Shown here piece after piece: positions 5,301-55,236 of a stretch of 58,489 nt of DNA. The stretch spans positions 1 to 58,489 of IMG/VR virus record IMGVR_UViG_3300032087_004351. One strand, given 5' to 3'. The notes beneath the pieces are model-generated. The model did no database searches. It had not been told where the DNA came from and saw only the letters and a program-made list of their open reading frames with translations. The stretch comes from a virus. Both the position numbers and the translations under genes were made by a program. Each line of letters starts with the position of its first letter. Within the stretch, counting starts at the first letter, position 1.

Positions 5301-7968
5301 AATGAATGTAGGAGTTAGAGACATTGGTGTTATTGGCGGTGTTTATGTGCAAGACGATGAAGGCATTGGAGCGGCCGATGTGTATCTTCCAGAACAAGGA
5401 GGTGATTATAACGATCATTTTTTTGGATACCCTTCAGAGGGTGCAATTAGAACAAGAATTACTCCAGATGTAAATAATTCAGGCGTCCCATCACAAAAGG
5501 ACGTTGTAGATTGGTGCGGCGGAGAAGGGAATTCAAACACTGATATCACCCCTACAGATGACAGGACTCTTGTAACTTATTTGCTGTGTGGGCCATTTTT
5601 TACTGGCAGCATAGCCTTGAACCCAATAGCCACCAATCCGCAGACCGACGCTGGGGAGGAAAATATAAGTGGGGTCGTCAATCACGATGGTGACGACGCC
5701 ATAGGCCCGCTAAGCGGAGTGTATAACGAGAATAGCCCAACAAACGGATACGAATTTCTTAACGGAGCGACATCAAAGATAAATAAAGATCAGCAGTGGA
5801 ATCCAGCTGGCGTGTGGGATCAGACAACCACAATGCCATACATTTTTTCTGGTTCTACAAACAGAAGAGTTTACCAAAATCAATTTGCATACTCTACTGT
5901 ATTTCCGTTCCCTCTTTTGGACGGAGCGAACCTAGCTCCCCCTCCTAGCTCGGAAACAGGGTTTACAGTTTACGATCAGCCAAATTCTCCTTTGTATGAA
6001 GATCTCTACGATCAGGGGTCGTTACCGACAGATTTAGGCTGGAATGCTTCTCATCCCACGTTCGGATCTATTAGCTGGGAGGACAAGCCTGGACACGCTG
6101 AAATGGCTTCTTCGACGACGTCGGTCACTGGACCTTCAGGAAAGCCTATTATGACGTTTAAGGCAAATGCAAATCACGAATTTGGGATTATATATTATGA
6201 CGAAAGAGGAAGGCACGGAAGGGTAAATCACCTTACAAGCGTTTATGTTCCTGGGTTCTCTCCAGCAGAAAGAAATGGTATTGCTGATGGCGGACCCGCA
6301 CACATACGGATGAAGTTCAATAGCGACCCGCCAGAATGGGCGAGATACTATAAAATAGCCTACTCCAAAAATACCTCTATATCAGACTTTTTTCAGTACT
6401 CCTCTGGAGGAGCGTTTATTCCGTACGGAGAGAGTCCTATTGACTCTGGCTTGAATTCTGCTAAGTTTTACGTATCTCTAAATTACCTCCAAGGTCACCC
6501 TATTTCATATTCTGATTCGTGGGGAGCAAAATCGCAGCTCGGAAGCCCTGTGGTGTTTCAACCAGAGCAGGGAGACAAGGTTAGAGTCATTTCTTACCAG
6601 AGAGGATCTGAGAGCCAAACAGAGAAGGTGTTTCCCAGAAACATTGTGTTTGATGTAATTGGCATTGAGTCCTTAGACGAAAGCAGCTCTAATCCTCTAT
6701 GGAATGTGGACGCCGATGGTGACGTTCCAGAAAACAGAAAAGGATTGTTCTTAACTGTTAGAAACAACCCAGCAAACGAAGGGTTTTCATACGCTGACAT
6801 TGAACAAAGCGCAGACGGTTGGGGGCAGAATTGCATCATCGAGATATATAGACCAATCGACACTCTAAGTGAAGATGACCGACTCTATTACGAGATAGGT
6901 CCTACGTATCGATGTGGCAACCCTCTAGTGAACACAGGCACGCTAGGATCGGCTATTCCAGATATAACCAAGTTTAAGCACTTGAATCACAACCATGAGG
7001 ACGATTCAATAGAGATTACAGACGGAGATGTTTTCTTCAGAAACACTGCTGTAAACCTCAGGGAATTTGATGGTGACGAATTTATAGACCTTATAAGAAG
7101 CGAACAGGTTGACGTAGACGGCGATGGCACGTTAGATGACGAATGGATTGTCACTTCAGAACCAAACTTTAAGAGTATATATACCGAAGCCATGTCTGCA
7201 TCGGACCTCTTTAAGTCCGATGCAATATCAATAGGGAGACCAAACAAAATAGACAATGACGAAAAGGAGGTTAGGCGAATAGCGTCACTTGTCCACTCAG
7301 ATAAAGACATAGCAAAAAGCTCTAAAGTCGGTTACTCATCCTTTAACGGGAGCGAATCTAACGACAAGGATCTTGATATTGTTCACGGCCAAGTAGATTA
7401 CACGGCAAATACAAACGATTCTCTTCTGGTTATTCAGAGAAACAGAGTCTCTCAAATTCCTGTGGACAGGAATCTTATATCTACAGCCGACAATGAACCA
7501 AGCCTTATTTCTTCGTCTAATTTCCTTAACACACCTAGATATTACGCAGGGAAAGCTGGTTCTGACGGGAATCCAGAGAGTGTGGCTATGGAGAACGGAA
7601 ACGCTTACTTTGTTCACAAGTCTGACGGCAAGGTCTTTAGGTTTAGCCCTTCAAACGGCATTATACCTATTTCTGACAAAGGAATGAAGGCGTACTTTAG
7701 AGATCTTCTTGGATCTGTGGGAAAGAATGATAAGATTATAGGTGGGTACGACCCCGTAAAAGGGGAGTACCTTATCACTATAAAAAACATAAGTGAACTT
7801 ACGGATCAAAATGGATATGTGATTCCGCTCTTTGGTATTCCAGATCTCACGTTTAATACAGACTTTCTACCTAATTCAACTACTATACAGGCGGAAACAA
7901 CTAGCGTATCTAGCGGAGATAGCCTGTTTGAAAGCGAGGAAGCCGACACAGACCCCGCAAGCGTTTAA
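2347..7968 (+). CDS. Giant tail hub / tail stabilisation protein (beta-propeller type)
   Basis: 1,873 residues, nearly all beta-strand and loop, with many Asp/Asn/Gly turns and no signal peptide or coiled coil. The N-terminus (RKLDKDSDYKLVQ, then a segment ending in IKPIRGTQ) and the C-terminal 200 residues (VRRIASLVHSD, GNAYFVHKSDGKVFRFSP, GYDPVKGEYLITI) resemble the propeller repeats of P22 gp10-like and crAss-like tail hub proteins. The central 1,300 residues look like large inserted domains. It follows the adaptor gene directly and is the second largest virion gene. Exact fold is inference. Confidence 0.65.
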   Translation: MIDKLQPRKLDKDSDYKLVQKTSMIDALNVHISEATSGDQGNSGVIKPIRGTQALSFTDGTVMTSTDIRVLGSTVDDLTGVLYFYVWADVPEEQGVYAYDKRSILSEDGGLIKVYTSATFNFPPDGFVKGDIVYKREKNRPQDSTIPDVDSILYFTDNVNEPRKLDVYRALFAGDIPNSGNFLPYKIHDIICACPKVPMGNIDYEFQADATKQVSNFEKTPGIQFAVQGVYTDGSVTSIGPYSKIAFPPSIVNRGAAPAAKVLNHNVCKIKIPTYEEDFEYIKILFRYGNKASFRELAEVPNQGSSTDENWNSTTREYSFYNDQVVKGVSPSDVAKTFDNLPRQARAQSVVSNRLVFSNFKEGFDPYKPEVTTTVLFKRRPPEGVDFTVDIVPTIEGNWSPNGDVINKVMGFEIDTEQIPDDISEGTTISVAFSFSPDKNFHVFEARGGYQQSQHIGPVSGNFRGLPTAYQYDEGRGRYFIGGNGESAEIEDITAFSKAAAPLGIDNYVEGIIPSTGSAGYLLNDGNGSEGWTSALRSGQGSSRWLDYNNGGHQYGLKYDENHPEIPQPSVNAFFGRNFGVGYRCDEGVGSSNYPFKNTDGTEEEQCPTYEYKYSTLEPFTTRSAYGTSAGNPLIFQGGALLFNVSFQITQDVSNGRAIVAQTIEDAMVRRSITHQDSVNLLSVQNEYTHKIDIQLKNGDKIYPGEVNSDLICASADVGNTENPSNMMNADNLIQLVEMGGRDRRIPMHYFIVNKADVRFFFEPAYRPALPSPRKAFQLSIASVNLDSEDGLFTCIKRPEPTTPWYCISKSKIDDVLENQTSYSSIMSSYTNSISDDSMFLDMDGIDLFVEMLEYQVAHKINLKALGRIKCKETDPDSGFTSFFPCSIDIDDELYSPSTQPSETQFRFSILDGAGGPGGYAPGSSSAYASHDNGRFGSVAGQMIATFHGVHDSGGGGIRSKLKTMVPSIGSSYSEDTNLEGFEDGMNVGVRDIGVIGGVYVQDDEGIGAADVYLPEQGGDYNDHFFGYPSEGAIRTRITPDVNNSGVPSQKDVVDWCGGEGNSNTDITPTDDRTLVTYLLCGPFFTGSIALNPIATNPQTDAGEENISGVVNHDGDDAIGPLSGVYNENSPTNGYEFLNGATSKINKDQQWNPAGVWDQTTTMPYIFSGSTNRRVYQNQFAYSTVFPFPLLDGANLAPPPSSETGFTVYDQPNSPLYEDLYDQGSLPTDLGWNASHPTFGSISWEDKPGHAEMASSTTSVTGPSGKPIMTFKANANHEFGIIYYDERGRHGRVNHLTSVYVPGFSPAERNGIADGGPAHIRMKFNSDPPEWARYYKIAYSKNTSISDFFQYSSGGAFIPYGESPIDSGLNSAKFYVSLNYLQGHPISYSDSWGAKSQLGSPVVFQPEQGDKVRVISYQRGSESQTEKVFPRNIVFDVIGIESLDESSSNPLWNVDADGDVPENRKGLFLTVRNNPANEGFSYADIEQSADGWGQNCIIEIYRPIDTLSEDDRLYYEIGPTYRCGNPLVNTGTLGSAIPDITKFKHLNHNHEDDSIEITDGDVFFRNTAVNLREFDGDEFIDLIRSEQVDVDGDGTLDDEWIVTSEPNFKSIYTEAMSASDLFKSDAISIGRPNKIDNDEKEVRRIASLVHSDKDIAKSSKVGYSSFNGSESNDKDLDIVHGQVDYTANTNDSLLVIQRNRVSQIPVDRNLISTADNEPSLISSSNFLNTPRYYAGKAGSDGNPESVAMENGNAYFVHKSDGKVFRFSPSNGIIPISDKGMKAYFRDLLGSVGKNDKIIGGYDPVKGEYLITIKNISELTDQNGYVIPLFGIPDLTFNTDFLPNSTTIQAETTSVSSGDSLFESEEADTDPASV

Positions 7969-21000: not shown

Positions 21001-22057
21001 CAGAAAGCAGAGAAACTTTGTCATCTTTACTGGACAAAGAGACAACGTCCAAGTACCTCTTCCTTATGGAATAAACATTTTCTCAAACGTAGGGATGACG
21101 CTGGCAGAACTTTGTTTTGGCATTACCGATGTAGACGATGCGGCCTTGTTCTTGGCGATATCTGCCAACTCATCGTTCAACCCTATTGCGTTTGGGCATG
21201 GAGATAATGTTGGCTCTTATGCTGCAACTACACTTTCGCCTACATTCCTAAAGCCATTCGTAGAAGTTGCAATGAATGAGACGTATTTCGGAACCCCAGT
21301 ATACAGAGAGCAGTACGATTTTGGAACTGAAGTGCCAGAATACACGCTCTCTTATAGAGCTCCAGAGTGGATGGTTGAGATAAACAAGGCGCTAAACGAA
21401 GCTAGCGGAGGCAAAGAGTATATAAGCGGGGATATGGACTTTAATCCAGATCCTATATACTACCTCATACAATCGATGCTTGGAGGCTCTGGTAAGTTCT
21501 TCTCAGAAACATTTGATCTTGGCTACACTGGATACAAGGTCATAGAAAATGCCATTAACGAAACGGATGAAAACACTGGATTCCTTGAGGCCCTTGAGAA
21601 AACAGAGAAGCCAAAGCTGAGAAGAAGCGATATACCTATCCTCAAACTTATATACGCAGATCCCAACCGATTCTATGACTTTGACTTGTTTGAGAAAAAC
21701 AGCAAAGAAGTCAGGCAGTATAGAAATCAGGCGGACAAATATCTTGAGCAAAAAACAGATGATGTCGAAGGATTGGACTTCACTGGAATTGGAAACAAAG
21801 AAGAGGGACTCATTAAAGAACTCAACGATACAGAGGCAATACTACAAGACATTAGAAATCTTCGCGTTGCTGTAAGAAATTCAGACCTTAACTACATCGA
21901 AAAAAATAACGTACTATATGACCTTGACGTAGAGGAGTCAAAGACAGTCGTGTACTTTAACGCCAAGTACTATGAACTTAGAGGGCAGTACATTGATCCA
22001 CGCCCAACAGGACTTATCTCCGAAAAGGAACTTAGAAAAGCATTTGGAGTAGAATGA
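12013..22057 (+). CDS. Giant polyvalent ejection protein with zincin-type HExxH motif; reading frame broken at a T10 run
   Basis: From ATG 12013 the frame ends at a TGA (12187-12189) after 58 codons, but skipping one T in the ten-T run at 12066-12075 joins it to an open frame running to 22057, giving about 3,347 residues. Without the shift the long frame has only an internal TTG (12416) and 3,213 residues. In full-length numbering, about 944-984 is a Gly/Ala-rich hydrophobic stretch (possible membrane segment) and 1486-1490 is HELGH, a zinc metallopeptidase signature. Residues 2730-2915 contain VWNPSFFLPNFIRD and NITVNFNKSG, typical of large polyvalent protein domain LPD38. It is followed by the holin with a four-base overlap. 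Likely ejected into the host at infection; the protease substrate is unknown. Confidence 0.75.
12066..12075 (+). other. Ten-T homopolymer: frameshift or slippage site
   Basis: A run of exactly ten T bases follows CAATC. Nine (or twelve) T would fuse the 12013 frame with the 3.2 kb-codon frame downstream. Either the count is wrong in this assembly or RNA polymerase slippage on the run makes a mixture of full-length and 58-residue products. Confidence 0.8.
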
Positions 22058-22485
22058 AACAGAAGATAAAAGACACAAGACTTGGTAAATGGTTGAAGGA
22101 GAAAGCCCCCACCGTTTTGGATACGGTTGGGGATCTTCTCCCTGATCAAGGCGCATTAGGGGTTGTGAAAAACCTGCTCGACAATGATGATAGTGTAGAC
22201 CCTGCAGAGGCCAAGGCTATGGTAGACGCAGAGATTGCATATCAGAATAACGTCACGGAAAGATGGAAGGCCGACATGGGTGGAGACATCAAGCTCGCTA
22301 AGTACATCAGACCTGTGACTTTGATCGCATTGATGGCCATGTTTGTACTTACAATGGTGCTCGACTCTATGGATGACTTACCCTTCAACGTCAAGGATAG
22401 TTATGTATCTTTGTTGGAAATCCTAATGTTGACAGCATTCGGCGCATATTTCGCTGGAAGAACCATTGAAAAGGCTAAGAAATGA
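22054..22485 (+). CDS. Putative holin (3TM-type)
   Basis: 143 residues. An amphipathic N-terminal half with KWLKEKAPTVLDTVGDLLP precedes two clear hydrophobic segments (about 87-107 and 117-135), the second ending in FGAYFAGRTIEKAKK. The 'YIRPVTL...FGAYFxGRxxEK' layout is that of the GTA-type/3TM phage holin family. It is the first gene of a three-gene cassette joined by four-base ATGA overlaps. Expected role: forming membrane lesions at lysis; the endolysin is encoded far away at 42942. Confidence 0.7.
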   Translation: MKQKIKDTRLGKWLKEKAPTVLDTVGDLLPDQGALGVVKNLLDNDDSVDPAEAKAMVDAEIAYQNNVTERWKADMGGDIKLAKYIRPVTLIALMAMFVLTMVLDSMDDLPFNVKDSYVSLLEILMLTAFGAYFAGRTIEKAKK

Positions 22486-22760
22486 ACGTAAGTGAGAAGA
22501 CTCAGCTAACGCTTGATTTAAAAACTATAGCAATTATTGTCTCATTTGCGATCTCGCTTACTACTATGTGGTATGCTGTTCAGGCTGATATCGAGCTTGC
22601 CAAGCAGCTCCCAGAGCCAGAGGTATCAAGGACCGAATACGACCTCAAGGATCAGCTCATCAGAGAAACCATCATGAATACTCAGGCTCAGGTCGAGGAG
22701 AACGGAAAGAAACTCGACCTCATAGAGGCTAGATTGTACGAGTTAAGCACTCAGCCATGA
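22482..22760 (+). CDS. Small membrane-anchored coiled-coil protein, spanin-like
   Basis: 92 residues. One N-terminal transmembrane helix (about 13-33) is followed by a periplasmic region with a short coiled coil (about 60-90). That topology, and the position right behind the holin with ATGA overlaps on both sides, match an inner-membrane spanin (Rz-like). No nested lipoprotein partner was found, so the spanin assignment is tentative. Confidence 0.55.
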   Translation: MNVSEKTQLTLDLKTIAIIVSFAISLTTMWYAVQADIELAKQLPEPEVSRTEYDLKDQLIRETIMNTQAQVEENGKKLDLIEARLYELSTQP

Positions 22761-23110
22761 ACAAGACGATAGCTGCAATAGCAATCACGTCTGGCCTCGT
22801 GGGTACTGGGGCGGTCATGAATCTGTCTGAAAAAGAAGCAGCGCCAGAGGTCACTGTAGTTCAGATCAACGCAAAATGGAACCGATACAACACACGGGAG
22901 GACCTTGAATACCTTGAAGACTGTGAGTATAGGTTCGGGTGGCTTGAAGACCAGCCATACGAGCTTAGAAGCACAATCAAGTCCGTACCCGTCGTAGTCA
23001 TCTACGACGAAGGACACCCAGCCTATCAATACGTAGCTGGAATTAGCTTAGAACTAGACACACCATTCGATACTATCCAGAATCAAGTCTGGAAAGAGCT
23101 GGATGATTAA
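22757..23110 (+). CDS. Thioredoxin-fold-like protein without the CxxC motif
   Basis: 117 residues with a hydrophobic N-terminal signal anchor (about 4-22). The body reads like a thioredoxin fold: VTVVQINAKWN where the active-site strand would be, then KSVPVVVIYDEG with a Ser-Val-Pro at the cis-proline position, then YVAG. The usual CxxC is absent; Cys appears only once, far from the expected site. Last gene of the rightward late block; its stop overlaps the stop of the convergent moron (23107-23110). A redox role is unlikely; binding or scaffolding is possible. Confidence 0.55.
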   Translation: MNKTIAAIAITSGLVGTGAVMNLSEKEAAPEVTVVQINAKWNRYNTREDLEYLEDCEYRFGWLEDQPYELRSTIKSVPVVVIYDEGHPAYQYVAGISLELDTPFDTIQNQVWKELDD

Positions 23111-23778
23111 CGGATCAGCATTACGTGGCCTGAAGCCACGAGCTGATCTTCGGAAGACCCCATGATCGTCCAGATGTAAACGCCCTGAGGGGCGCCAGAT
23201 CCGTCCCAGCACGATCCTTTTAGTAGATCTCCGACAAATACGATTCGGCCCCTCCTGTCGTATACCTTAAGCTCAAGGTCGTCCCAGCAATACTCGTCTA
23301 CTACAGGGCAGAAGGTTTCGTTTAACCCGTCTCCATCTGGGGTAAATGAATTGGGTACGTAGATGTCATAGTCGCATCCCACGCAAGAAGCCCCAGTAAA
23401 GCAATCAACGCTGGTTACGCTGTAAACTGTGTCTGGATCAAGCGTGATGTAGTTGACGATCTCGACGGTGTCTGCGGGTAGTTGCACGTATACCGTGTCG
23501 CATGACTCTACTGGCGGCTCAAGAACTCCGCACTTCCACGCCACCCAAGCAGCCCATATGCCATCGACACCGTGGTAGTAATCACACAAGAGCTCCCCGA
23601 CTTCGTATGGGGTCGTGCAATCAAGACAGGAGCCGTCGTCCACGGTAGCTTCGTCATTGTAGTTGCATGAGTTTGGCCACATGCACCCATAAATAACTGG
23701 CGTTTCTACATAGACCGTATCACATTGACTAACAGCGATTAACGGAACAAAGAACAGGGACAGAAGAGCTTTTTTCAT
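23107..23778 (-). CDS. Secreted Cys-rich protein with type IX secretion (CHU_C / type B) sorting domain: moron
   Basis: 223 residues. Residues 1-17 are a Sec signal peptide, probably cut before Gln18. CDTVYV occurs twice (19-24, 93-98), and 31-51 contain the GCxxPxxCNYNxxATVDDGSC pattern seen in flavobacterial surface proteins. Residues 139-223 match the gliding-motility-associated type B C-terminal domain: VPNSFTPDGDGLNETF, a central LKVYDRRGRIVF, WDGSGAPQGVY and a final GHVMLIR. Fourteen cysteines suggest disulfides. Such domains direct export across the outer membrane by the host T9SS. It has its own promoter and is insulated from the RNR operon by a terminator. Likely role: changing the surface of the infected cell, for example superinfection exclusion (inference). 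Confidence 0.85.
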   Translation of the reverse strand: MKKALLSLFFVPLIAVSQCDTVYVETPVIYGCMWPNSCNYNDEATVDDGSCLDCTTPYEVGELLCDYYHGVDGIWAAWVAWKCGVLEPPVESCDTVYVQLPADTVEIVNYITLDPDTVYSVTSVDCFTGASCVGCDYDIYVPNSFTPDGDGLNETFCPVVDEYCWDDLELKVYDRRGRIVFVGDLLKGSCWDGSGAPQGVYIWTIMGSSEDQLVASGHVMLIR

Positions 23779-23782
23779 TACG

Positions 23783-23790
23783 CAAAAATA
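23783..23790 (-). promoter_or_regulatory. Promoter -7 box (TATTTTTG, - strand) of the moron
   Basis: Read on the - strand, TATTTTTG fits TAnnTTTG and sits four bases before the moron's ATG (first base 23778). It lies inside the T-rich tail of the terminator that ends the upstream operon, so the moron is transcribed on its own. Confidence 0.65.
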
Positions 23791-23817
23791 AGAAAAAAAG
23801 AAGGGGCCGAAGCCCCC
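23791..23817 (-). terminator. Terminator of the early/RNR operon (- strand)
   Basis: On the - strand a GGGGC(TTCG)GCCCC hairpin (803-807 with 812-816 of 23xxx) is followed by a T-rich tract. It lies 90 bases past the end of the RNR gene. On the + strand no T-run follows, so it acts leftward only. Confidence 0.85.
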
Positions 23818-23907
23818 TCTCTAAGATTGCGAAGTTCCACAGTCAACTAACCCGTGTAACGGACCCAAGATAATACATCTGGGATATCCAGCATCTATCG
23901 ATCCTTT

Positions 23908-25800
23908 TCATCGTACTGGACATGCTCCGCCTTCGCAGTCGGCTATTTCTATATCCTCCATGTTGAGCTGAGTAAGGCTCGTGATTGGAGTACAGGCCTT
24001 CGACATCTCAAGCCACTGATCGTGAGTGATCTCCTCCATTGGAGCCTGATCGAATCCATGCTCGTTGTGTAGCAGAAAAGAAACCGACTTCACATTGATG
24101 TAGTTTTCATCAAGCCACGTCCTGATAGCGTCTAGCTCCTCTTTTCTGTAGTAAATTGTTACAGATACAGAATTGTCCGACCATTCAGCCTGTAGCCGCT
24201 TGATCACTTCAAGCTGATCAACGGCGCTCATGTCTTCGGCGAACGTTGTGCCAGCAGGGAACGAGCAAGGGAAGCTTACGACCACTGTGGAGTGGTCTTC
24301 CGTTCCGTCAAAGTTTCGGACATATTCTACGTGATACCCGTTGTCTCGGCACACGCCGACCAGCTCGCTATCTGCAGCCATTCTGATTCGTCGTATGTAG
24401 TACTGTGAATATCCTGGGTGTGCTCCTGGTGTAACGCCAGCAAGTAGAGACAGCGTTCCACTGGGCTTGACCGTCGTAAGTTTAATAGATGTTGGAAATC
24501 CGCAAATTCTAGAGTACTCTTGATCATATGCTCTCAGGTGATTGTAAACGGATGGGAGCCAGCTGCGTTGCTCTTCAGTAGCCTGAAGGTATCCAGTCAC
24601 ACCAATCCCCATACGCATGTTTTTATGAACGATATCCTCAGTTTCGGGAACCGCGCACTTGATCGCCAAGCTATGCTTATTGATACGGTATAGCAGTGTA
24701 GCAACATCTTTGAGCTCTCTCTCCGTCTCAATATTCGGTAGATAGATCTCAGCGAGACAACAGGTCTCAAATGGAGCAAGACTCTGTTCCGCACACGGGT
24801 TGTACCCCATGACGTCGGGGTCAGGGTACTTAACATCACCCGTCCTTCCCATACGACGCGAGGCTTCAAGATTGATGAGTCCGTATGGCTCTCCATTTCC
24901 TTTGTATCCTTCCCAGAATTCTTCAGGAAGTAAGGAGATGTCGTCGCATGCAACTGAGTTGTTGGACATGGCTCTCCAGTTAGGTATTCCTCCCAAGTCC
25001 CATCGCTTGGCTCGTAGGTATTCGATGTCATCATGATCTCCGATTGCAATTTGGGCAGACCGACGGACGTTACCTGCCACTACGATCTTGCCGATTATAT
25101 TCATAATGTCTAAGCAGTCAATGGGGCGCAAGCGCTTTCCGCTGCGCTCATTGAGGATGCGGTTGATCTCGTTCATTCCCCAGATAAGATCTCCAGGACC
25201 TGAAGCCGTGCCGCCGAATCCCTTGATAGGGGATCCTGCTGGCCGAACAAGAGAGGTATCGTACGTGAATCCATTGCCTGTAAAGAATGAGGCCTCTAAT
25301 ACGCGCTCAAGAAGCTCCGTCCAACCCTCACGAGAATCTGGCACGATGAAGTCCGCTCCATGATCCTCTACGTGTTGAACCTTAACCTTCTTCTTCACCT
25401 TAGGTAGTTGGTATACGTGCTCTCTCTGGATGTTAAATCCTACACCGCTCCCGAGCATGAGCATCTCAAATGCCCATGTGAAGGGGCGTACAGGTTCATC
25501 CACTACGGTGAATGCACAATTCTGCAGCGAAGGAAGACCGAGTCGGTCTACTGTCTTGGTGCCGAGTTGCCATAGGAATCGTCCAGCTACCGTGCCTTTC
25601 AGCTGCATCATCATCCGCTTGATGTCCTCTTGATCCTTCTCGTTGAAGTCACACTTGAGTTGCTTGTTGCACGCTTCGATCACGCGGTCTACTGTCTCCT
25701 CCCATTCCTCGGTTCGGTCTTTGATCGGGCGAGCATAGGTACGCTTATATGTGGCGTAGCCGACCTCACCCCAGGGGATTAGCTCTGGGTTATAAGTCAT
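23908..25800 (-). CDS. nrdJ: Adenosylcobalamin-dependent ribonucleoside-triphosphate reductase (class II)
   Basis: 630 residues, monomeric RTPR type as in Lactobacillus leichmannii. Visible catalytic parts: QNCAF (C95) and C347 as the reducible pair, NPCAE (N334, C336, E338) holding the thiyl cysteine and the glutamate, a KPSGT loop, and a C-terminal shuttle pair C622/C627 in CEGGACPVR. The 11-residue spacing from C336 to C347 and 5-residue spacing from C622 to C627 match the leichmannii enzyme (408/419, 731/736). It converts NTPs to dNTPs using vitamin B12 coenzyme, without oxygen. Last gene of the early operon, 43 bases after a nuclease gene. Confidence 0.92.
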   Translation of the reverse strand: MTYNPELIPWGEVGYATYKRTYARPIKDRTEEWEETVDRVIEACNKQLKCDFNEKDQEDIKRMMMQLKGTVAGRFLWQLGTKTVDRLGLPSLQNCAFTVVDEPVRPFTWAFEMLMLGSGVGFNIQREHVYQLPKVKKKVKVQHVEDHGADFIVPDSREGWTELLERVLEASFFTGNGFTYDTSLVRPAGSPIKGFGGTASGPGDLIWGMNEINRILNERSGKRLRPIDCLDIMNIIGKIVVAGNVRRSAQIAIGDHDDIEYLRAKRWDLGGIPNWRAMSNNSVACDDISLLPEEFWEGYKGNGEPYGLINLEASRRMGRTGDVKYPDPDVMGYNPCAEQSLAPFETCCLAEIYLPNIETERELKDVATLLYRINKHSLAIKCAVPETEDIVHKNMRMGIGVTGYLQATEEQRSWLPSVYNHLRAYDQEYSRICGFPTSIKLTTVKPSGTLSLLAGVTPGAHPGYSQYYIRRIRMAADSELVGVCRDNGYHVEYVRNFDGTEDHSTVVVSFPCSFPAGTTFAEDMSAVDQLEVIKRLQAEWSDNSVSVTIYYRKEELDAIRTWLDENYINVKSVSFLLHNEHGFDQAPMEEITHDQWLEMSKACTPITSLTQLNMEDIEIADCEGGACPVR

Positions 25801-42372: not shown

Positions 42373-42828
42373 TTAGTCAAGCATAGTTTCTGCAGAAACG
42401 AATGTCGCTGACTCTCGTGCAATCCTTAATGGTGACGGCTTAGAGGAAAGAATCCCGTTGCTTTCTTCTGCCCACCCTTGCTCTTTCATGACTCTGATGT
42501 AGTCTTGATCAAAGACAATACATGTCTGATTTGTAATTTCTTCTGTGGCGATGTTTCCACCCACAAAGCAGTATACACCTTCTTCTCTAATGTCAAAGAA
42601 TGTTTCCCCGATGTGAACCTTTCCTTCAATAAAGTTCAGCTTAGGTCCAGCCGTATCAAAGAACTTGTCCCAGTCTTTGACTTCGTGAACGTCTACATCG
42701 ACTTTGTAGATTGCGACAGCGTCTACGCTAGTATTATCGGTAAACACCCACTCTCTGTAATTAATGTCTTGAGCGAGGATAGAGAAGAACATCGTGCATA
42801 AGGTTGCCACCATAATTGCCTTTTTCAT
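42373..42828 (-). CDS. Secreted periplasmic or surface protein, unknown
   Basis: 151 residues. Residues 1-19 are a Sec signal peptide cut before Gln20 (ILA-QD), the usual flavobacterial style. The mature protein is acidic, beta-rich (VDAVAIYKVDVDVHEV) with two cysteines (C87, C103) that could form a disulfide. No T9SS tail, lipobox or catalytic motif. A lone - strand gene among rightward late genes with a shared terminator; no consensus promoter is seen upstream. Probably acts on the host envelope. Confidence 0.65.
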   Translation of the reverse strand: MKKAIMVATLCTMFFSILAQDINYREWVFTDNTSVDAVAIYKVDVDVHEVKDWDKFFDTAGPKLNFIEGKVHIGETFFDIREEGVYCFVGGNIATEEITNQTCIVFDQDYIRVMKEQGWAEESNGILSSKPSPLRIARESATFVSAETMLD

Positions 42829-52027: not shown

Positions 52028-52196
52028 AAGCAGAGTAAACGAGGCTGGAAATTACACAAAGCCGTCGCTTAGAAAAAGATTATTTAATCGCATCAAGGCA
52101 GGCACTAAGGGTGGTAATGCTGGGCAGTGGTCTGCCCGCAAAGCTCAGATGCTAGCCAAGCAGTACAAAGCTGCAGGCGGTGGATACAAAGACTAA
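52014..52196 (+). CDS. 60-residue basic protein, conserved in marine phages
   Basis: MAKSKSRVNEAGNYTKPSLR at the start, then KRLFNRIKAG, GQWSARKAQMLAKQYKAAGGGYKD. This exact layout recurs, from memory, in many cyanophage and pelagiphage structural regions. Role unknown; probably a small virion protein that touches DNA. Ends with TAATG shared with the next start. Confidence 0.65.
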   Translation: MAKSKSRVNEAGNYTKPSLRKRLFNRIKAGTKGGNAGQWSARKAQMLAKQYKAAGGGYKD

Positions 52197-52459
52197 TGCC
52201 TAGACTTAAAAAATCACAGAAGTCTTTAAAGGACTGGACGTCACAAAAGTGGATGACGTCTGGCACTCACGCAAATAAAAAGAAAGGCAGCTCCAAGGAG
52301 GTTAAGTCTGCTGGAAAGAAGCGGTATCTGCCTAAGGCAGCATGGGACGCTTTGAGTAAAGGCGAGAAGGCGGCTACAAACAAAGCGAAGGCATCGAGCA
52401 GTAAGCAGTTTGTCAAACAACCCAAGTCTATTGCTCGTAAAACTTCACGTTACAGATAA
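52196..52459 (+). CDS. 87-residue DUF5872-like basic protein
   Basis: Starts at ATG 52196 (MPRLKKSQKSLKDWTSQKW); a longer in-frame ATG at 52127 lies inside the previous gene. LKDWTSQKW, KKRYLPKAAWDALSKGEKAATNKAK and KQFVKQPKSIARKTSRYR match the DUF5872 outline I recall. Function unknown, typical of phage capsid operons. Confidence 0.65.
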   Translation: MPRLKKSQKSLKDWTSQKWMTSGTHANKKKGSSKEVKSAGKKRYLPKAAWDALSKGEKAATNKAKASSSKQFVKQPKSIARKTSRYR

Positions 52460-52463
52460 TTAC

Positions 52464-52471
52464 TATATTTG
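52464..52471 (+). promoter_or_regulatory. Promoter -7 box (TATATTTG)
   Basis: TATATTTG, 18 bases before the ATG at 52490, in a short gap. It would drive the decoration-like genes and the capsid genes. Confidence 0.65.
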
Positions 52472-52489
52472 CAGAAATAACAAATACAA

Positions 52490-52954
52490 ATGGCTACTAC
52501 CACTGTTACCCTATCGATTGCAAGTGCAGACCTGACGACAGACGCTCTGTCGTTGAGCGCTACTAAAACGCTGTACAATGCAGGCACCTCTACGGGTATG
52601 TCTCAGGTTGAAGGTGTGGCAAAAAAGTTTTTGGCTGGGGACGCTACCAACCCTCAGAACTACGTTATTGGTAACGCAAGCGTGTCCAAGTTTACTGCTG
52701 GCGGCGCAACCAAGATCTACATTAAGAATACATCTACTGTGACCTCTGACTACCTCACGGTTATCGTCGGAGAGGACGCAGGCGCTTCAGACGGAACCTA
52801 CACTGGTCAGGAGTTGGGTAGACTTTATGGAGGTGACTTTTTGTTCATCCCGTGGTCTGCCGTGACTACCTCAACCCCAGACTCTGACATTATTGTTCAG
52901 ACTCCAGCTAACTCTCTCAACCAAGAGGTCGAATACCTTATAATTTTCGAATAA
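52490..52954 (+). CDS. Decoration-like beta protein, paralogue 1
   Basis: 154 residues, beta-rich, Thr/Ala/Ser-rich. MATTTVTLSIASADLTTDALSLSATKTL at the start, KIYIKNTS, then GRLYGGDFLFIPW and a final QEVEYLIIFE. The two following genes have the same layout. Probably a capsid decoration or head-fibre base protein; shares a base with the next start. Confidence 0.65.
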   Translation: MATTTVTLSIASADLTTDALSLSATKTLYNAGTSTGMSQVEGVAKKFLAGDATNPQNYVIGNASVSKFTAGGATKIYIKNTSTVTSDYLTVIVGEDAGASDGTYTGQELGRLYGGDFLFIPWSAVTTSTPDSDIIVQTPANSLNQEVEYLIIFE

Positions 52955-53346
52955 TGCCTACAACCACAGCTACACTCACGCTTACTAGCGCAGACCTCAC
53001 AAGCGACGCTTTGTCTCTCAGCACCACTGCTACGCTCACGCAGCACAACAGCGACACTGGTCTTGACTACACGACTGGCGTAAACAGAATTACATACGGA
53101 AGCACTCAAACCAACACCACTCTTATTGCGTCTGCTGACTACACCGCTGCAAAGGCTCACAAGATTTACATCAAGAATTTGTCAACAAGCAACTCTGATT
53201 CTTTGACCATTGAGGTTGCTGCACGAGAACTTGGAGACTTGTATGGTGGTGATTGGTCATTCTTTCCGTACGACGCATCAAGCGATATCACCATATCAAC
53301 AAGCGGTGCTCTCAGCGTTGAGTACATGGTAATCTATCAACAGTAA
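52954..53346 (+). CDS. Decoration-like beta protein, paralogue 2
   Basis: 130 residues, layout MPTTTATLTLTSADLTSDAL, HKIYIKNLS, GDLYGGDWSFFPY, VEYMVIYQQ. The first 35 and central residues align plainly with paralogue 1. No Cys. Tandem arrangement indicates duplication. Confidence 0.65.
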   Translation: MPTTTATLTLTSADLTSDALSLSTTATLTQHNSDTGLDYTTGVNRITYGSTQTNTTLIASADYTAAKAHKIYIKNLSTSNSDSLTIEVAARELGDLYGGDWSFFPYDASSDITISTSGALSVEYMVIYQQ

Positions 53347-53810
53347 TGGCATCAGTTAGCGTAACACTAGGTATTAGCAGCAGCGACGTTCTAAGCACAA
53401 GCGTTGGCTTGAGCGCCAGGATGTCTCTAGAGGCCGACTCTGGAACCATTATAAAGTCTAGAATTGCAGACACCACAGGGGCTGTAAAGGAAACCTCTGG
53501 AGGCGCTGGAGACGGAGAGCTAAACGGGGTCACTGTATATAAGGCGAATGACAAGCAGACTAGGGCTTATGTTTACGTAAGAAACCTGTCCGATGTTCTC
53601 GAAGACTACATCTACGTGTACAACTCTACCGATAGTGATTTAGGATTTACTACTTTTTCTGAAGCTTCTGTAGCAAAGATCGGAGGTGGTCAGTTTGCAT
53701 TTATCCCTGTGTCCGTAGACACTACATTTAAGGCATACGCCACAAAAGCAAATCAAGTTATTGAATACGGAGTCTTCGGAATGGACGACCCAGATTATAT
53801 ATTAGAATAA
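53346..53810 (+). CDS. Decoration-like beta protein, paralogue 3
   Basis: 154 residues: MASVSVTLGISSSDVLSTSV, AYVYVRNLS, AKIGGGQFAFIPVS, VIEYGVFGMDD. More diverged from paralogues 1 and 2 but with the same order of strands. Shares a base with the next gene (TAATG). Confidence 0.65.
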   Translation: MASVSVTLGISSSDVLSTSVGLSARMSLEADSGTIIKSRIADTTGAVKETSGGAGDGELNGVTVYKANDKQTRAYVYVRNLSDVLEDYIYVYNSTDSDLGFTTFSEASVAKIGGGQFAFIPVSVDTTFKAYATKANQVIEYGVFGMDDPDYILE

Positions 53811-54100
53811 TGGCACATCCATCAGACACACTACCTAAGGACGTCTACGTTCTCGACGCAACAAATGCTCTCGTTCCTTCAGAAGGGAAGTACATCTTCG
53901 CTCTGCTGAACCCCACTGCCGCAGCGATTAATGCCACGGTAAAAGGTAGCATTTACAACTGGGATGGCACGACATCTACATATAAGCAGATTGCATCCAC
54001 GGCCACGGACGTTATTCCCGTGCAGCCAGGAGCTGTCGTATACGGTAGATTTACCTCTTGCCTTGCCAGCGCAGCAGACCTGATCTGCTACGTAGGATAA
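53810..54100 (+). CDS. 96-residue small virion-like protein
   Basis: Beta-rich, with FALLNPTAAAINATVKGSIYNW and a final YGRFTSCLASAADLICYVG. Two cysteines near the end. Sits between the tandem proteins and scaffold; probably a minor head or decoration component. Confidence 0.6.
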   Translation: MAHPSDTLPKDVYVLDATNALVPSEGKYIFALLNPTAAAINATVKGSIYNWDGTTSTYKQIASTATDVIPVQPGAVVYGRFTSCLASAADLICYVG

Positions 54101-54123
54101 AATAGAATAAAAATTTAAATATA

Positions 54124-55236
54124 ATGGAAGAGAATACAACTCCAGAAATCCAGGTCTTCGACAACCCCGAAGACCTTGCTGCATCTATGAGTGCAGGGTC
54201 ACAATCTGTCGAACAACCACAAGAAACGATTCAAGAGACCTCTCCTGAGGCTTCTCCTGAACCTTCTTATGAGGGCAATGAGTCTACCCCATACGTAGAC
54301 CCAGAGGCATCTCCTACACAAGAGCAGTCACAATTTGATGCCGTTGTAGAAAGCAGACAGGAAACTCCTTACGAACGCCCTCAGTACACTCAAGAGGATG
54401 TAGACAACAGAATTCTTAGTTACGTGAGCCAAAGGCTCAATAGAGAAATTAACTCTTTCGAGGATTTCAATCAACCTCAGGTAAACGAAAGTGTTGAAGC
54501 CATCAACCGCTTCGTCCAAGAGACAGGACGTACGCCACAAGATTGGTTTAAATACCAGACGTTGAACCCAGAGGGGATGGATGATCTCACCGCCGTTAAG
54601 GTTGCTGCGGCTGCAGGTTACAAAAACCTGTCACCGCAGGAGATCGATATGCTCGTTAGTGACAATTATAAATTAGACGCTGAGAAGCACGGAGAAGAGA
54701 CAGCAAGACTTGCTGCTCTTCGTCTTAAAATTGATGCTGAACAGGCACGCGCAGAGATCCAGGAGATTAGAGATCAATACGCGGCACCTATTCAAAATCA
54801 GAACGAAGACGAACCTCTGTTCGATCAGCAATGGATCAACAACATGGCTAACGAGTTTAGCTCAGTCGAAGGGTTGGAGTTTGACCTCGGAGACGGAAGT
54901 AGCATGACTTTTGGCCTGAATGATCAATATCGCCGATCCATGATGGAAAGAGGCGCTAAACTAGATGAGTTCTTCGACCCTTTCTTTAGAGAGGACGGGA
55001 GCTTTGACTACGATGGGCTTGCTACACAGATGGCAGTGCTTGACAACATCGACACCATTGTGCGTGCTGCGTACAACAAGGGTCGTGGTGACGGGCAACG
55101 CGGTCTTGTAAACAAAGCCGCTAACGTAGGTATGGTTCAGCCAAACTCTGGAAGCATGAATGAATCAAACCCGCTTGGCGAGCAGGTAAGAAATTTGATG
55201 AGCAAAAGCTCTGATAAACTAACATTCAACATCTAA
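54124..55236 (+). CDS. Scaffolding protein
   Basis: 370 residues. An acidic N-terminal third (Glu/Pro/Ser/Gln-rich, 1-80), then long helices (85-230) with alternating charges, then a Gly/Asp-rich and basic C-terminus. Position directly before the major capsid protein and helical acidic character are those of capsid scaffolds. No protease motif is seen. Confidence 0.75.
   Translation: MEENTTPEIQVFDNPEDLAASMSAGSQSVEQPQETIQETSPEASPEPSYEGNESTPYVDPEASPTQEQSQFDAVVESRQETPYERPQYTQEDVDNRILSYVSQRLNREINSFEDFNQPQVNESVEAINRFVQETGRTPQDWFKYQTLNPEGMDDLTAVKVAAAAGYKNLSPQEIDMLVSDNYKLDAEKHGEETARLAALRLKIDAEQARAEIQEIRDQYAAPIQNQNEDEPLFDQQWINNMANEFSSVEGLEFDLGDGSSMTFGLNDQYRRSMMERGAKLDEFFDPFFREDGSFDYDGLATQMAVLDNIDTIVRAAYNKGRGDGQRGLVNKAANVGMVQPNSGSMNESNPLGEQVRNLMSKSSDKLTFNI

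What the first reader, a model, noticed from the sequence alone, without database searches (positions are those of the whole stretch)
23107..23778. Phage-encoded moron tagged for the host type IX secretion system
Seen: a signal peptide, a Cys-rich body, and a type B (CHU_C) C-terminal domain with VPNSFTPDGDG, WDG..PQGVY and a final VMLIR; its own promoter right before the ATG; a terminator separating it from the RNR operon. Known: such domains mark cargo for the Bacteroidota T9SS, which exports and anchors proteins on the outer surface. Inference: the phage uses the host gliding/secretion apparatus to put its own protein on the infected cell, possibly to block superinfection or alter adhesion.
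Basis: partly seen in the sequence, partly recalled or inferred. Interest (0 to 1): 0.82.

Follow-up and report, generated by a model that had tools for sequence, protein, structure and literature searches.

The report
Phage protein carrying bacterial surface-export tag
A virus of Bacteroidota bacteria carries a gene for a small protein bearing the tag that sends bacterial proteins out to the cell surface, and dozens of related viral sequences carry one too, so these phages probably dress or disarm the surface of the cell they have infected.

Summary
ORF 23107-23778(-), 223 aa, has a Sec-type signal peptide, a Cys-rich body and a C-terminal CHU_C domain (PF13585, E 1.3e-10, above the curated cut-off). 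The stricter TIGR04131 scores 24 bits against a cut-off of 35. The gene has its own Bacteroidota promoter, TATTTTTG ending 4 nt before the ATG. Six other phage loci keep exactly that spacing, which predicts a leaderless mRNA. A terminator separates the gene from the RNR gene.

It is not a one-off. At least 539 IMG/VR stretches encode such domains. Of 42 such records, 25 also carry a phage-type terminase. Related podophages hold the gene at the same locus, convergent to the lysis genes. Most phage domains share a Cys-Trp motif (38/43) absent from 61 bacterial ones.

Between the two closest phages the head module is frozen (pN 0.013) while the export domain drifts (pN 0.28). None of 43 viral records encodes the PorP/SprF shuttle that such cargo needs, so the phage must borrow the host's.

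Phage-encoded T9SS cargo was reported in 2020 (Cryophage, type A), with the same superinfection-exclusion idea. New here: the type B lineage, its locus and promoter, orphan status, and a protease partner in relatives. Surface function is untested.

The parts
23107..23778 (-). CDS, 223 aa: phage-encoded secreted protein with T9SS type B C-terminal domain
   Evidence: PF13585 E 1.3e-10; orthologue 73% identical in L001
23725..23778 (-). signal peptide, residues 1-18 (MKKALLSLFFVPLIAVSQ), Sec type; the Cys at residue 19 is replaced by Ala in L001, so it is not a lipobox Cys
   Evidence: no signal-peptide predictor was available
23503..23700 (-). head module, residues 27-92: GC..P..CNYN..AT.DDGSC plus a helical tail with GELLCDYYH...W; near-invariant between two phages
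   Evidence: pN 0.013, pS 0.63 over residues 28-90; AF2 pLDDT 81.7, no PDB fold match
23365..23502 (-). short stalk/linker, residues 93-138: DTVYVQLPADTV... and VDCFTGASC, a minimal form of the DTVYVELPPDT / DC.TG.PC stalk of other phage cargo proteins
   Evidence: alignment A5
23110..23364 (-). CHU_C / T9SS type B C-terminal domain, residues 139-223, with the phage-typical CysTrp at 164-165
   Evidence: AF2 pLDDT about 96, best PDB match T9SS substrate domain 8glk_D
23783..23790 (-). promoter -7 element TATTTTTG (Bacteroidota TAnnTTTG), 4 nt before the ATG; predicted transcription start at the A of ATG (leaderless)
   Evidence: PMC6847099 places the G of the element at -5
23797..23822 (-). 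intrinsic terminator-like hairpin ending the upstream RNR transcription unit
23908..25800 (-). upstream neighbour: ribonucleotide reductase (context, absent next to the gene in L001)
   Evidence: phrog_367 E 2.7e-133
22054..23110 (+). convergent lysis-side cassette: holin (22054-22485), two small membrane-anchored or secreted-type proteins; the last gene overlaps the cargo gene's stop by 4 bp
   Evidence: holin phrog_3427 E 1.7e-19; conserved locus

Best explanation
This is a phage-encoded type B T9SS cargo protein. Shown by sequence: signal peptide, type B domain of a kind typical of phages, own conserved promoter, conserved locus. Inferred: it is made from a leaderless mRNA during infection, exported by Sec, extruded by the host T9SS, collected by a host PorP/SprF-type shuttle (the phage has none), and held on the outer surface, where the frozen Cys-rich head module binds or masks a surface partner. 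The most likely benefit is keeping other phages off the infected cell (superinfection exclusion) or freeing progeny from receptor-bearing surface.
For: PF13585 1.3e-10. Orthologue at the same locus in a related 58.5 kb phage, and the same locus in L031, L047, L062, L085, L035, L041 and L020. Promoter at identical 4-nt spacing in 7 loci. Head module under very strong purifying selection while the export domain drifts, as expected if the head does the work and the tag adapts to different host shuttles. Phage CTDs group together in a tree: 7 label changes against 31.6 when shuffled. Partner genes in some relatives are secreted M43 proteases, and in L049/L066/L093 protease, head module and tag are in one protein, which points to surface remodelling. 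Gliding/T9SS adhesins are suspected phage receptors (PMC13288928). Type B tags fix proteins on the cell surface through PorP-like proteins (PMC9143113, PMC12618676).
Against: No experiment. TIGR04131 is below its cut-off. The host is unidentified, so T9SS and a compatible shuttle in it are assumed. Shuttle-cargo pairing is specific, and motifs alone do not guarantee export. The head module has no known fold or function.
Confidence: 0.5

Rival explanations
1. Shuttle titration: the tag, not the head, is the active part. Phage cargo made from a strong promoter soaks up the scarce, non-recycled PorP/SprF shuttles, so host gliding adhesins (SprB-like phage receptors) are no longer displayed.
For: In F. 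johnsoniae shuttle levels limit type B export and shuttles are not recycled (PMC12618676). No virus record encodes a shuttle, with 11 found in a positive-control genome. Own promoter.
Against: The head module is the most conserved part and the tag the least, the opposite of what pure titration predicts. Many relatives carry large elaborate heads.
Confidence: 0.15
2. Adhesion or nutrient factor: the protein alters how infected cells stick to surfaces, polymers or each other, or supports extracellular digestion, as an auxiliary gene.
For: Known type B cargo are known or predicted adhesins. M43 proteases sit beside or fused to the cargo in several relatives. Cryophage cargo include an endoglucanase and a glycoside hydrolase.
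Against: The window protein is small and has no enzyme domain; short lytic infections gain little from slow extracellular digestion.
Confidence: 0.2
3. Captured host gene of no current use to the phage (recent pick-up, drifting).
For: CHU_C genes are abundant in hosts, roughly 7-73 per genome where present.
Against: Strong purifying selection on the head, conserved locus and promoter, phage-typical CysTrp motif and phage-grouped tree.
Confidence: 0.05
4. Lysis-associated factor: it works at the outer membrane at the end of infection, being next to the holin cassette.
For: Convergent to the holin cassette in many podophages.
Against: It is on the opposite strand with its own promoter. In other phages it lies upstream of terminase or in unrelated contexts. 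No lytic domain.
Confidence: 0.1

Closest known systems
Cryophage T9SS cargo genes (PMC7468147, 2020)
   Same: Phage-encoded proteins carrying T9SS sorting domains, presumed to hijack the host system; superinfection exclusion already proposed
   Different: Those are type A domains on an endoglucanase, a GH39 and a PA14 protein encoded by variable genes; here a type B domain, a small Cys-rich protein, a conserved locus and a dedicated leaderless promoter
T9SS type B cargo of F. johnsoniae (SprB, Fjoh_3952 and 'orphan' substrates; PMC12618676) and P. gingivalis PG1035 (PMC9143113)
   Same: Signal peptide plus C-terminal CHU_C/TIGR04131-type domain; orphan substrates use a shuttle encoded elsewhere
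   Different: Bacterial, known or predicted adhesins and mostly next to a PorP/SprF gene; bacterial domains examined here lack the phage CysTrp motif
crAss-like BACON ORFs with T9SS sorting domain (PMC6949934)
   Same: A T9SS sorting domain in gut phage proteins
   Different: BACON tandem-repeat proteins, unrelated head
Database entries 'Gliding motility-associated C-terminal domain' in uncultured Caudovirales phage and Virus NIOZ-UU157
   Same: Same kind of domain in viral proteins, among the best BFVD matches
   Different: Names only; no analysis of locus, promoter or shuttle found in the papers searched

Membership tests
T9SS type B cargo proteins (CHU_C / TIGR04131) | C-terminal CHU_C domain at the very C-terminus above the Pfam cut-off | tested here: met
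   PF13585 41.7 bits against 27, residues 140-220 of 223
T9SS type B cargo proteins (CHU_C / TIGR04131) | TIGR04131 above the NCBIfam cut-off | tested here: not met
   24 bits against 35; phage relatives 30-33 bits. Membership is claimed through PF13585, not TIGR04131
T9SS type B cargo proteins (CHU_C / TIGR04131) | N-terminal Sec signal peptide | tested here: met
   KK + hydrophobic core (mean hydropathy 2.6) + AVSQ, by inspection, conserved in relatives; no predictor was run
T9SS type B cargo proteins (CHU_C / TIGR04131) | C-terminal domain folds as the T9SS substrate beta-sandwich | tested here: inconclusive
   Best PDB match is T9SS substrate 8glk_D, Z 9.1, TMt 0.75, but unrelated Ig-like folds score nearly as high
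T9SS type B cargo proteins (CHU_C / TIGR04131) | Cognate PorP/SprF shuttle encoded next door (usual, not obligatory, so not a defining feature) | tested here: not met
   PF11751 absent from the window and 42 other virus records; positive control 11 hits in G043. 'Orphan' substrates are known
T9SS type B cargo proteins (CHU_C / TIGR04131) | T9SS-dependent export to the cell surface | not testable with these tools
   needs a host and a T9SS mutant
Phage moron / superinfection-exclusion gene | Own promoter and separation from neighbouring operons | tested here: met
Phage moron / superinfection-exclusion gene | Expression protects the host from further phage adsorption | not testable with these tools
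   needs an expression strain and phages

The most novel reading that the evidence does not exclude
A distinct phage-owned lineage of orphan type B T9SS cargo, recognisable by a CysTrp motif and in some phages paired with a secreted M43 protease, takes over host PorP/SprF shuttles and re-dresses the infected cell's surface, removing or masking receptors. That would make T9SS piracy a general infection strategy of Bacteroidota podophages.
Probability: 0.25. Interest if true: 0.78.

Novelty: new variant of a known kind. Interest (0 to 1): 0.55.

Why it matters
If true, phages of a major bacterial phylum routinely use the host's dedicated protein-export and gliding machine to place viral proteins on the infected cell. 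It gives a concrete way to ask how infected Bacteroidota cells change their surface, why gliding/T9SS mutants resist phages, and which shuttle a foreign type B tag uses. The 63-residue frozen head module is a small defined target for finding its surface partner.

Tried and rejected
Cellular source of the head module: a genome-contig scan gave only the generic NYN motif in two genomes and a chance 11-residue match in L089. Cultured phages carrying relatives: tblastn against 50,697 phage records with three queries gave significant hits only in metagenomic records, among them huge phages LR745206 and LR756502, so no isolate is at hand. PHROGs has no family for the protein. Lipoprotein rejected: -1 is Gln, and the Cys is Ala in L001. 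Second T9SS-type protein in the window: TIGR04183 hits only the same ORF, below cut-off. Fold of the head module: AF2 pLDDT 81.7, but the only PDB match had E 7.9. A type A tail on the M43 partners was suspected by eye; only P0002 gives a sub-threshold hit (15 bits against 23), so it is not claimed. A -33 promoter element was not found; it is also weak in Flavobacterium.

Full report
What is there. The window is an IMG/VR virus record of 58,489 bp with podophage-type genes: terminase phrog_6681 (2.2e-201), portal (1.1e-191), helicase, virion proteins and endolysin, and holin and RNR. Its terminase is closest to phages of Flavobacterium, Cellulophaga, Tenacibaculum and Maribacter, all Bacteroidota. 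ORF 23107-23778(-) encodes 223 aa with a signal peptide, 14 Cys and a C-terminal domain matching CHU_C at 1.3e-10. TIGR04131 is hit at 3.2e-5, below its cut-off. The other known type, TIGR04183, is not met.

Expression. A TAnnTTTG element ends exactly 4 nt before the ATG in the window and in L007, L008, L031, L044, L052 and L081 (7 of 45 cargo genes examined, and all seven at the same spacing). In the window four more genes (8965, 38987, 40406, 46503) have the same layout; Markov-shuffled sequences give none. Published Flavobacterium data put the final G of this element at -5 (PMC6847099), so transcription should start at the A of the ATG; leaderless mRNAs are only about 5.5% in F. psychrophilum (PMC9723704). 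A terminator hairpin closes the RNR unit just upstream. When in infection the gene is expressed is not known.

Relatives. L001 (58,510 bp phage) has a 73% identical protein at the same place, without the RNR neighbour. Codon comparison: residues 28-90 pN 0.013 with pS 0.63; residues 139-223 pN 0.28 with pS 0.80. So the head is frozen and the tag drifts. The slightly lower pS in the head leaves room for a more recent exchange of that segment, but 25 silent codon differences show it is not a recent copy. The same extended head module occurs in L002 and in protease fusions L049, L066 and L093, all of them CHU_C proteins, and in L095, which is cut by the contig end.

Breadth. All 42 records tested exceed the Pfam cut-off, nearly always with one copy each, and 25 also hit the terminase family, 16 of them strongly. 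Nearly all intact proteins have a signal peptide, a body, often a DTVYVELPPDT-type stalk and a DC.TG.PC linker, and the domain at the extreme C-terminus. In podophages the gene sits either convergent to the holin cassette, as in the window, or just upstream of terminase. These 80 loci were chosen by similarity to the window's domain, so they are not a random sample.

A phage lineage. A CysTrp pair in the domain is present in 38 of 43 non-redundant phage proteins, and no strict match at this place was found in 61 bacterial domains, 30 of which come from the best hits of the phage profile in 295 genomes. The phage set was picked by similarity to a domain that has the motif, which inflates the 38. 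In a tree of 94 domains the label phage/cell needs 7 changes against 31.6 when shuffled, although deep forks are unresolved and the window with L007 forms its own branch.

Shuttle. Type B cargo in F. johnsoniae depends on a PorP/SprF shuttle that is limiting and usually encoded next door, though three orphans share one (PMC12618676); type B proteins may be held by these barrels at the surface (PMC9143113). PF11751 is absent from all 43 virus records, and the same search finds 11 copies in a Chryseobacterium-labelled genome. The phage cargo is therefore orphan and must use a host shuttle, if it is exported at all.

Partner protease. In L002, L033, L047, L062, L083 and L085 the gene upstream encodes a secreted-type protein of one family that matches Peptidase_M43 in the three tested; in L047, L062, L033 and L083 the two genes abut or overlap, judged from the upstream sequence. 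L049 is an M43 domain fused to the cargo domain (1.6e-18 and 3.7e-15). The window has no such protease next to the gene. This suggests surface remodelling as the wider theme.

Structure. The tag domain is predicted with pLDDT about 96; the best solved match is a T9SS substrate domain (8glk_D), but other Ig-like folds score close. The head module alone gives pLDDT 81.7 and no PDB match.

Novelty. Phage-encoded T9SS cargo was described for Cryophage in 2020 (type A; PMC7468147), and T9SS domains in BACON phages in 2019 (PMC6949934). Viral proteins with this very domain already bear its name in public databases. What I did not find described, in the open-access papers searched, is the type B lineage, its conserved locus, leaderless promoter, orphan status and protease partner. 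Hence a new variant of a known kind. Function remains inference; my first choice is masking or removal of receptors on the infected cell.

Noticed in passing
window 8965, 38987, 40406, 46503 (+) and 23790 (-): Phage-wide leaderless promoter layout: TAnnTTTG ending 4 nt before the ATG, five cases in the window, none in shuffled sequences.
   Followed up: partly
L002:1457-3463; L047:7218-9269; L062:7401-9284; L049:2070-4976: Phage-encoded secreted-type M43 (pappalysin-type) metalloproteases directly upstream of, or fused to, the T9SS cargo protein.
   Followed up: partly
L098, L104, L109, L097 (locus position 6001 on): The GC.DP.A.NYN..AT.DDGSC motif also occurs in very large ORFs of other viral contigs, some of which look by eye like phage structural proteins, so it is a general surface module not limited to T9SS cargo.
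   Followed up: no
window 22757-23110 (+): 117 aa secreted-type protein in the lysis-side cassette looks thioredoxin-like by eye (SVP before a strand, no CxxC); conserved in relatives (cluster c7) but no Pfam hit.
   Followed up: no
window 42373-42828 (-): A second small ORF with a signal peptide (151 aa), on the opposite strand just before the endolysin, no significant family match.
   Followed up: no
L004 (LR756502), L005 (LR745206): Huge phages of 0.63-0.64 Mb encode very large (832-1670 aa) secreted-type CHU_C proteins.
   Followed up: no
IMGVR_UViG_3300032087_002691 (G001), 52169-54283: The terminase match in the closest relative is reported with one in-frame TAA, perhaps an assembly error, a boundary effect or an interrupted gene.
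   Followed up: no
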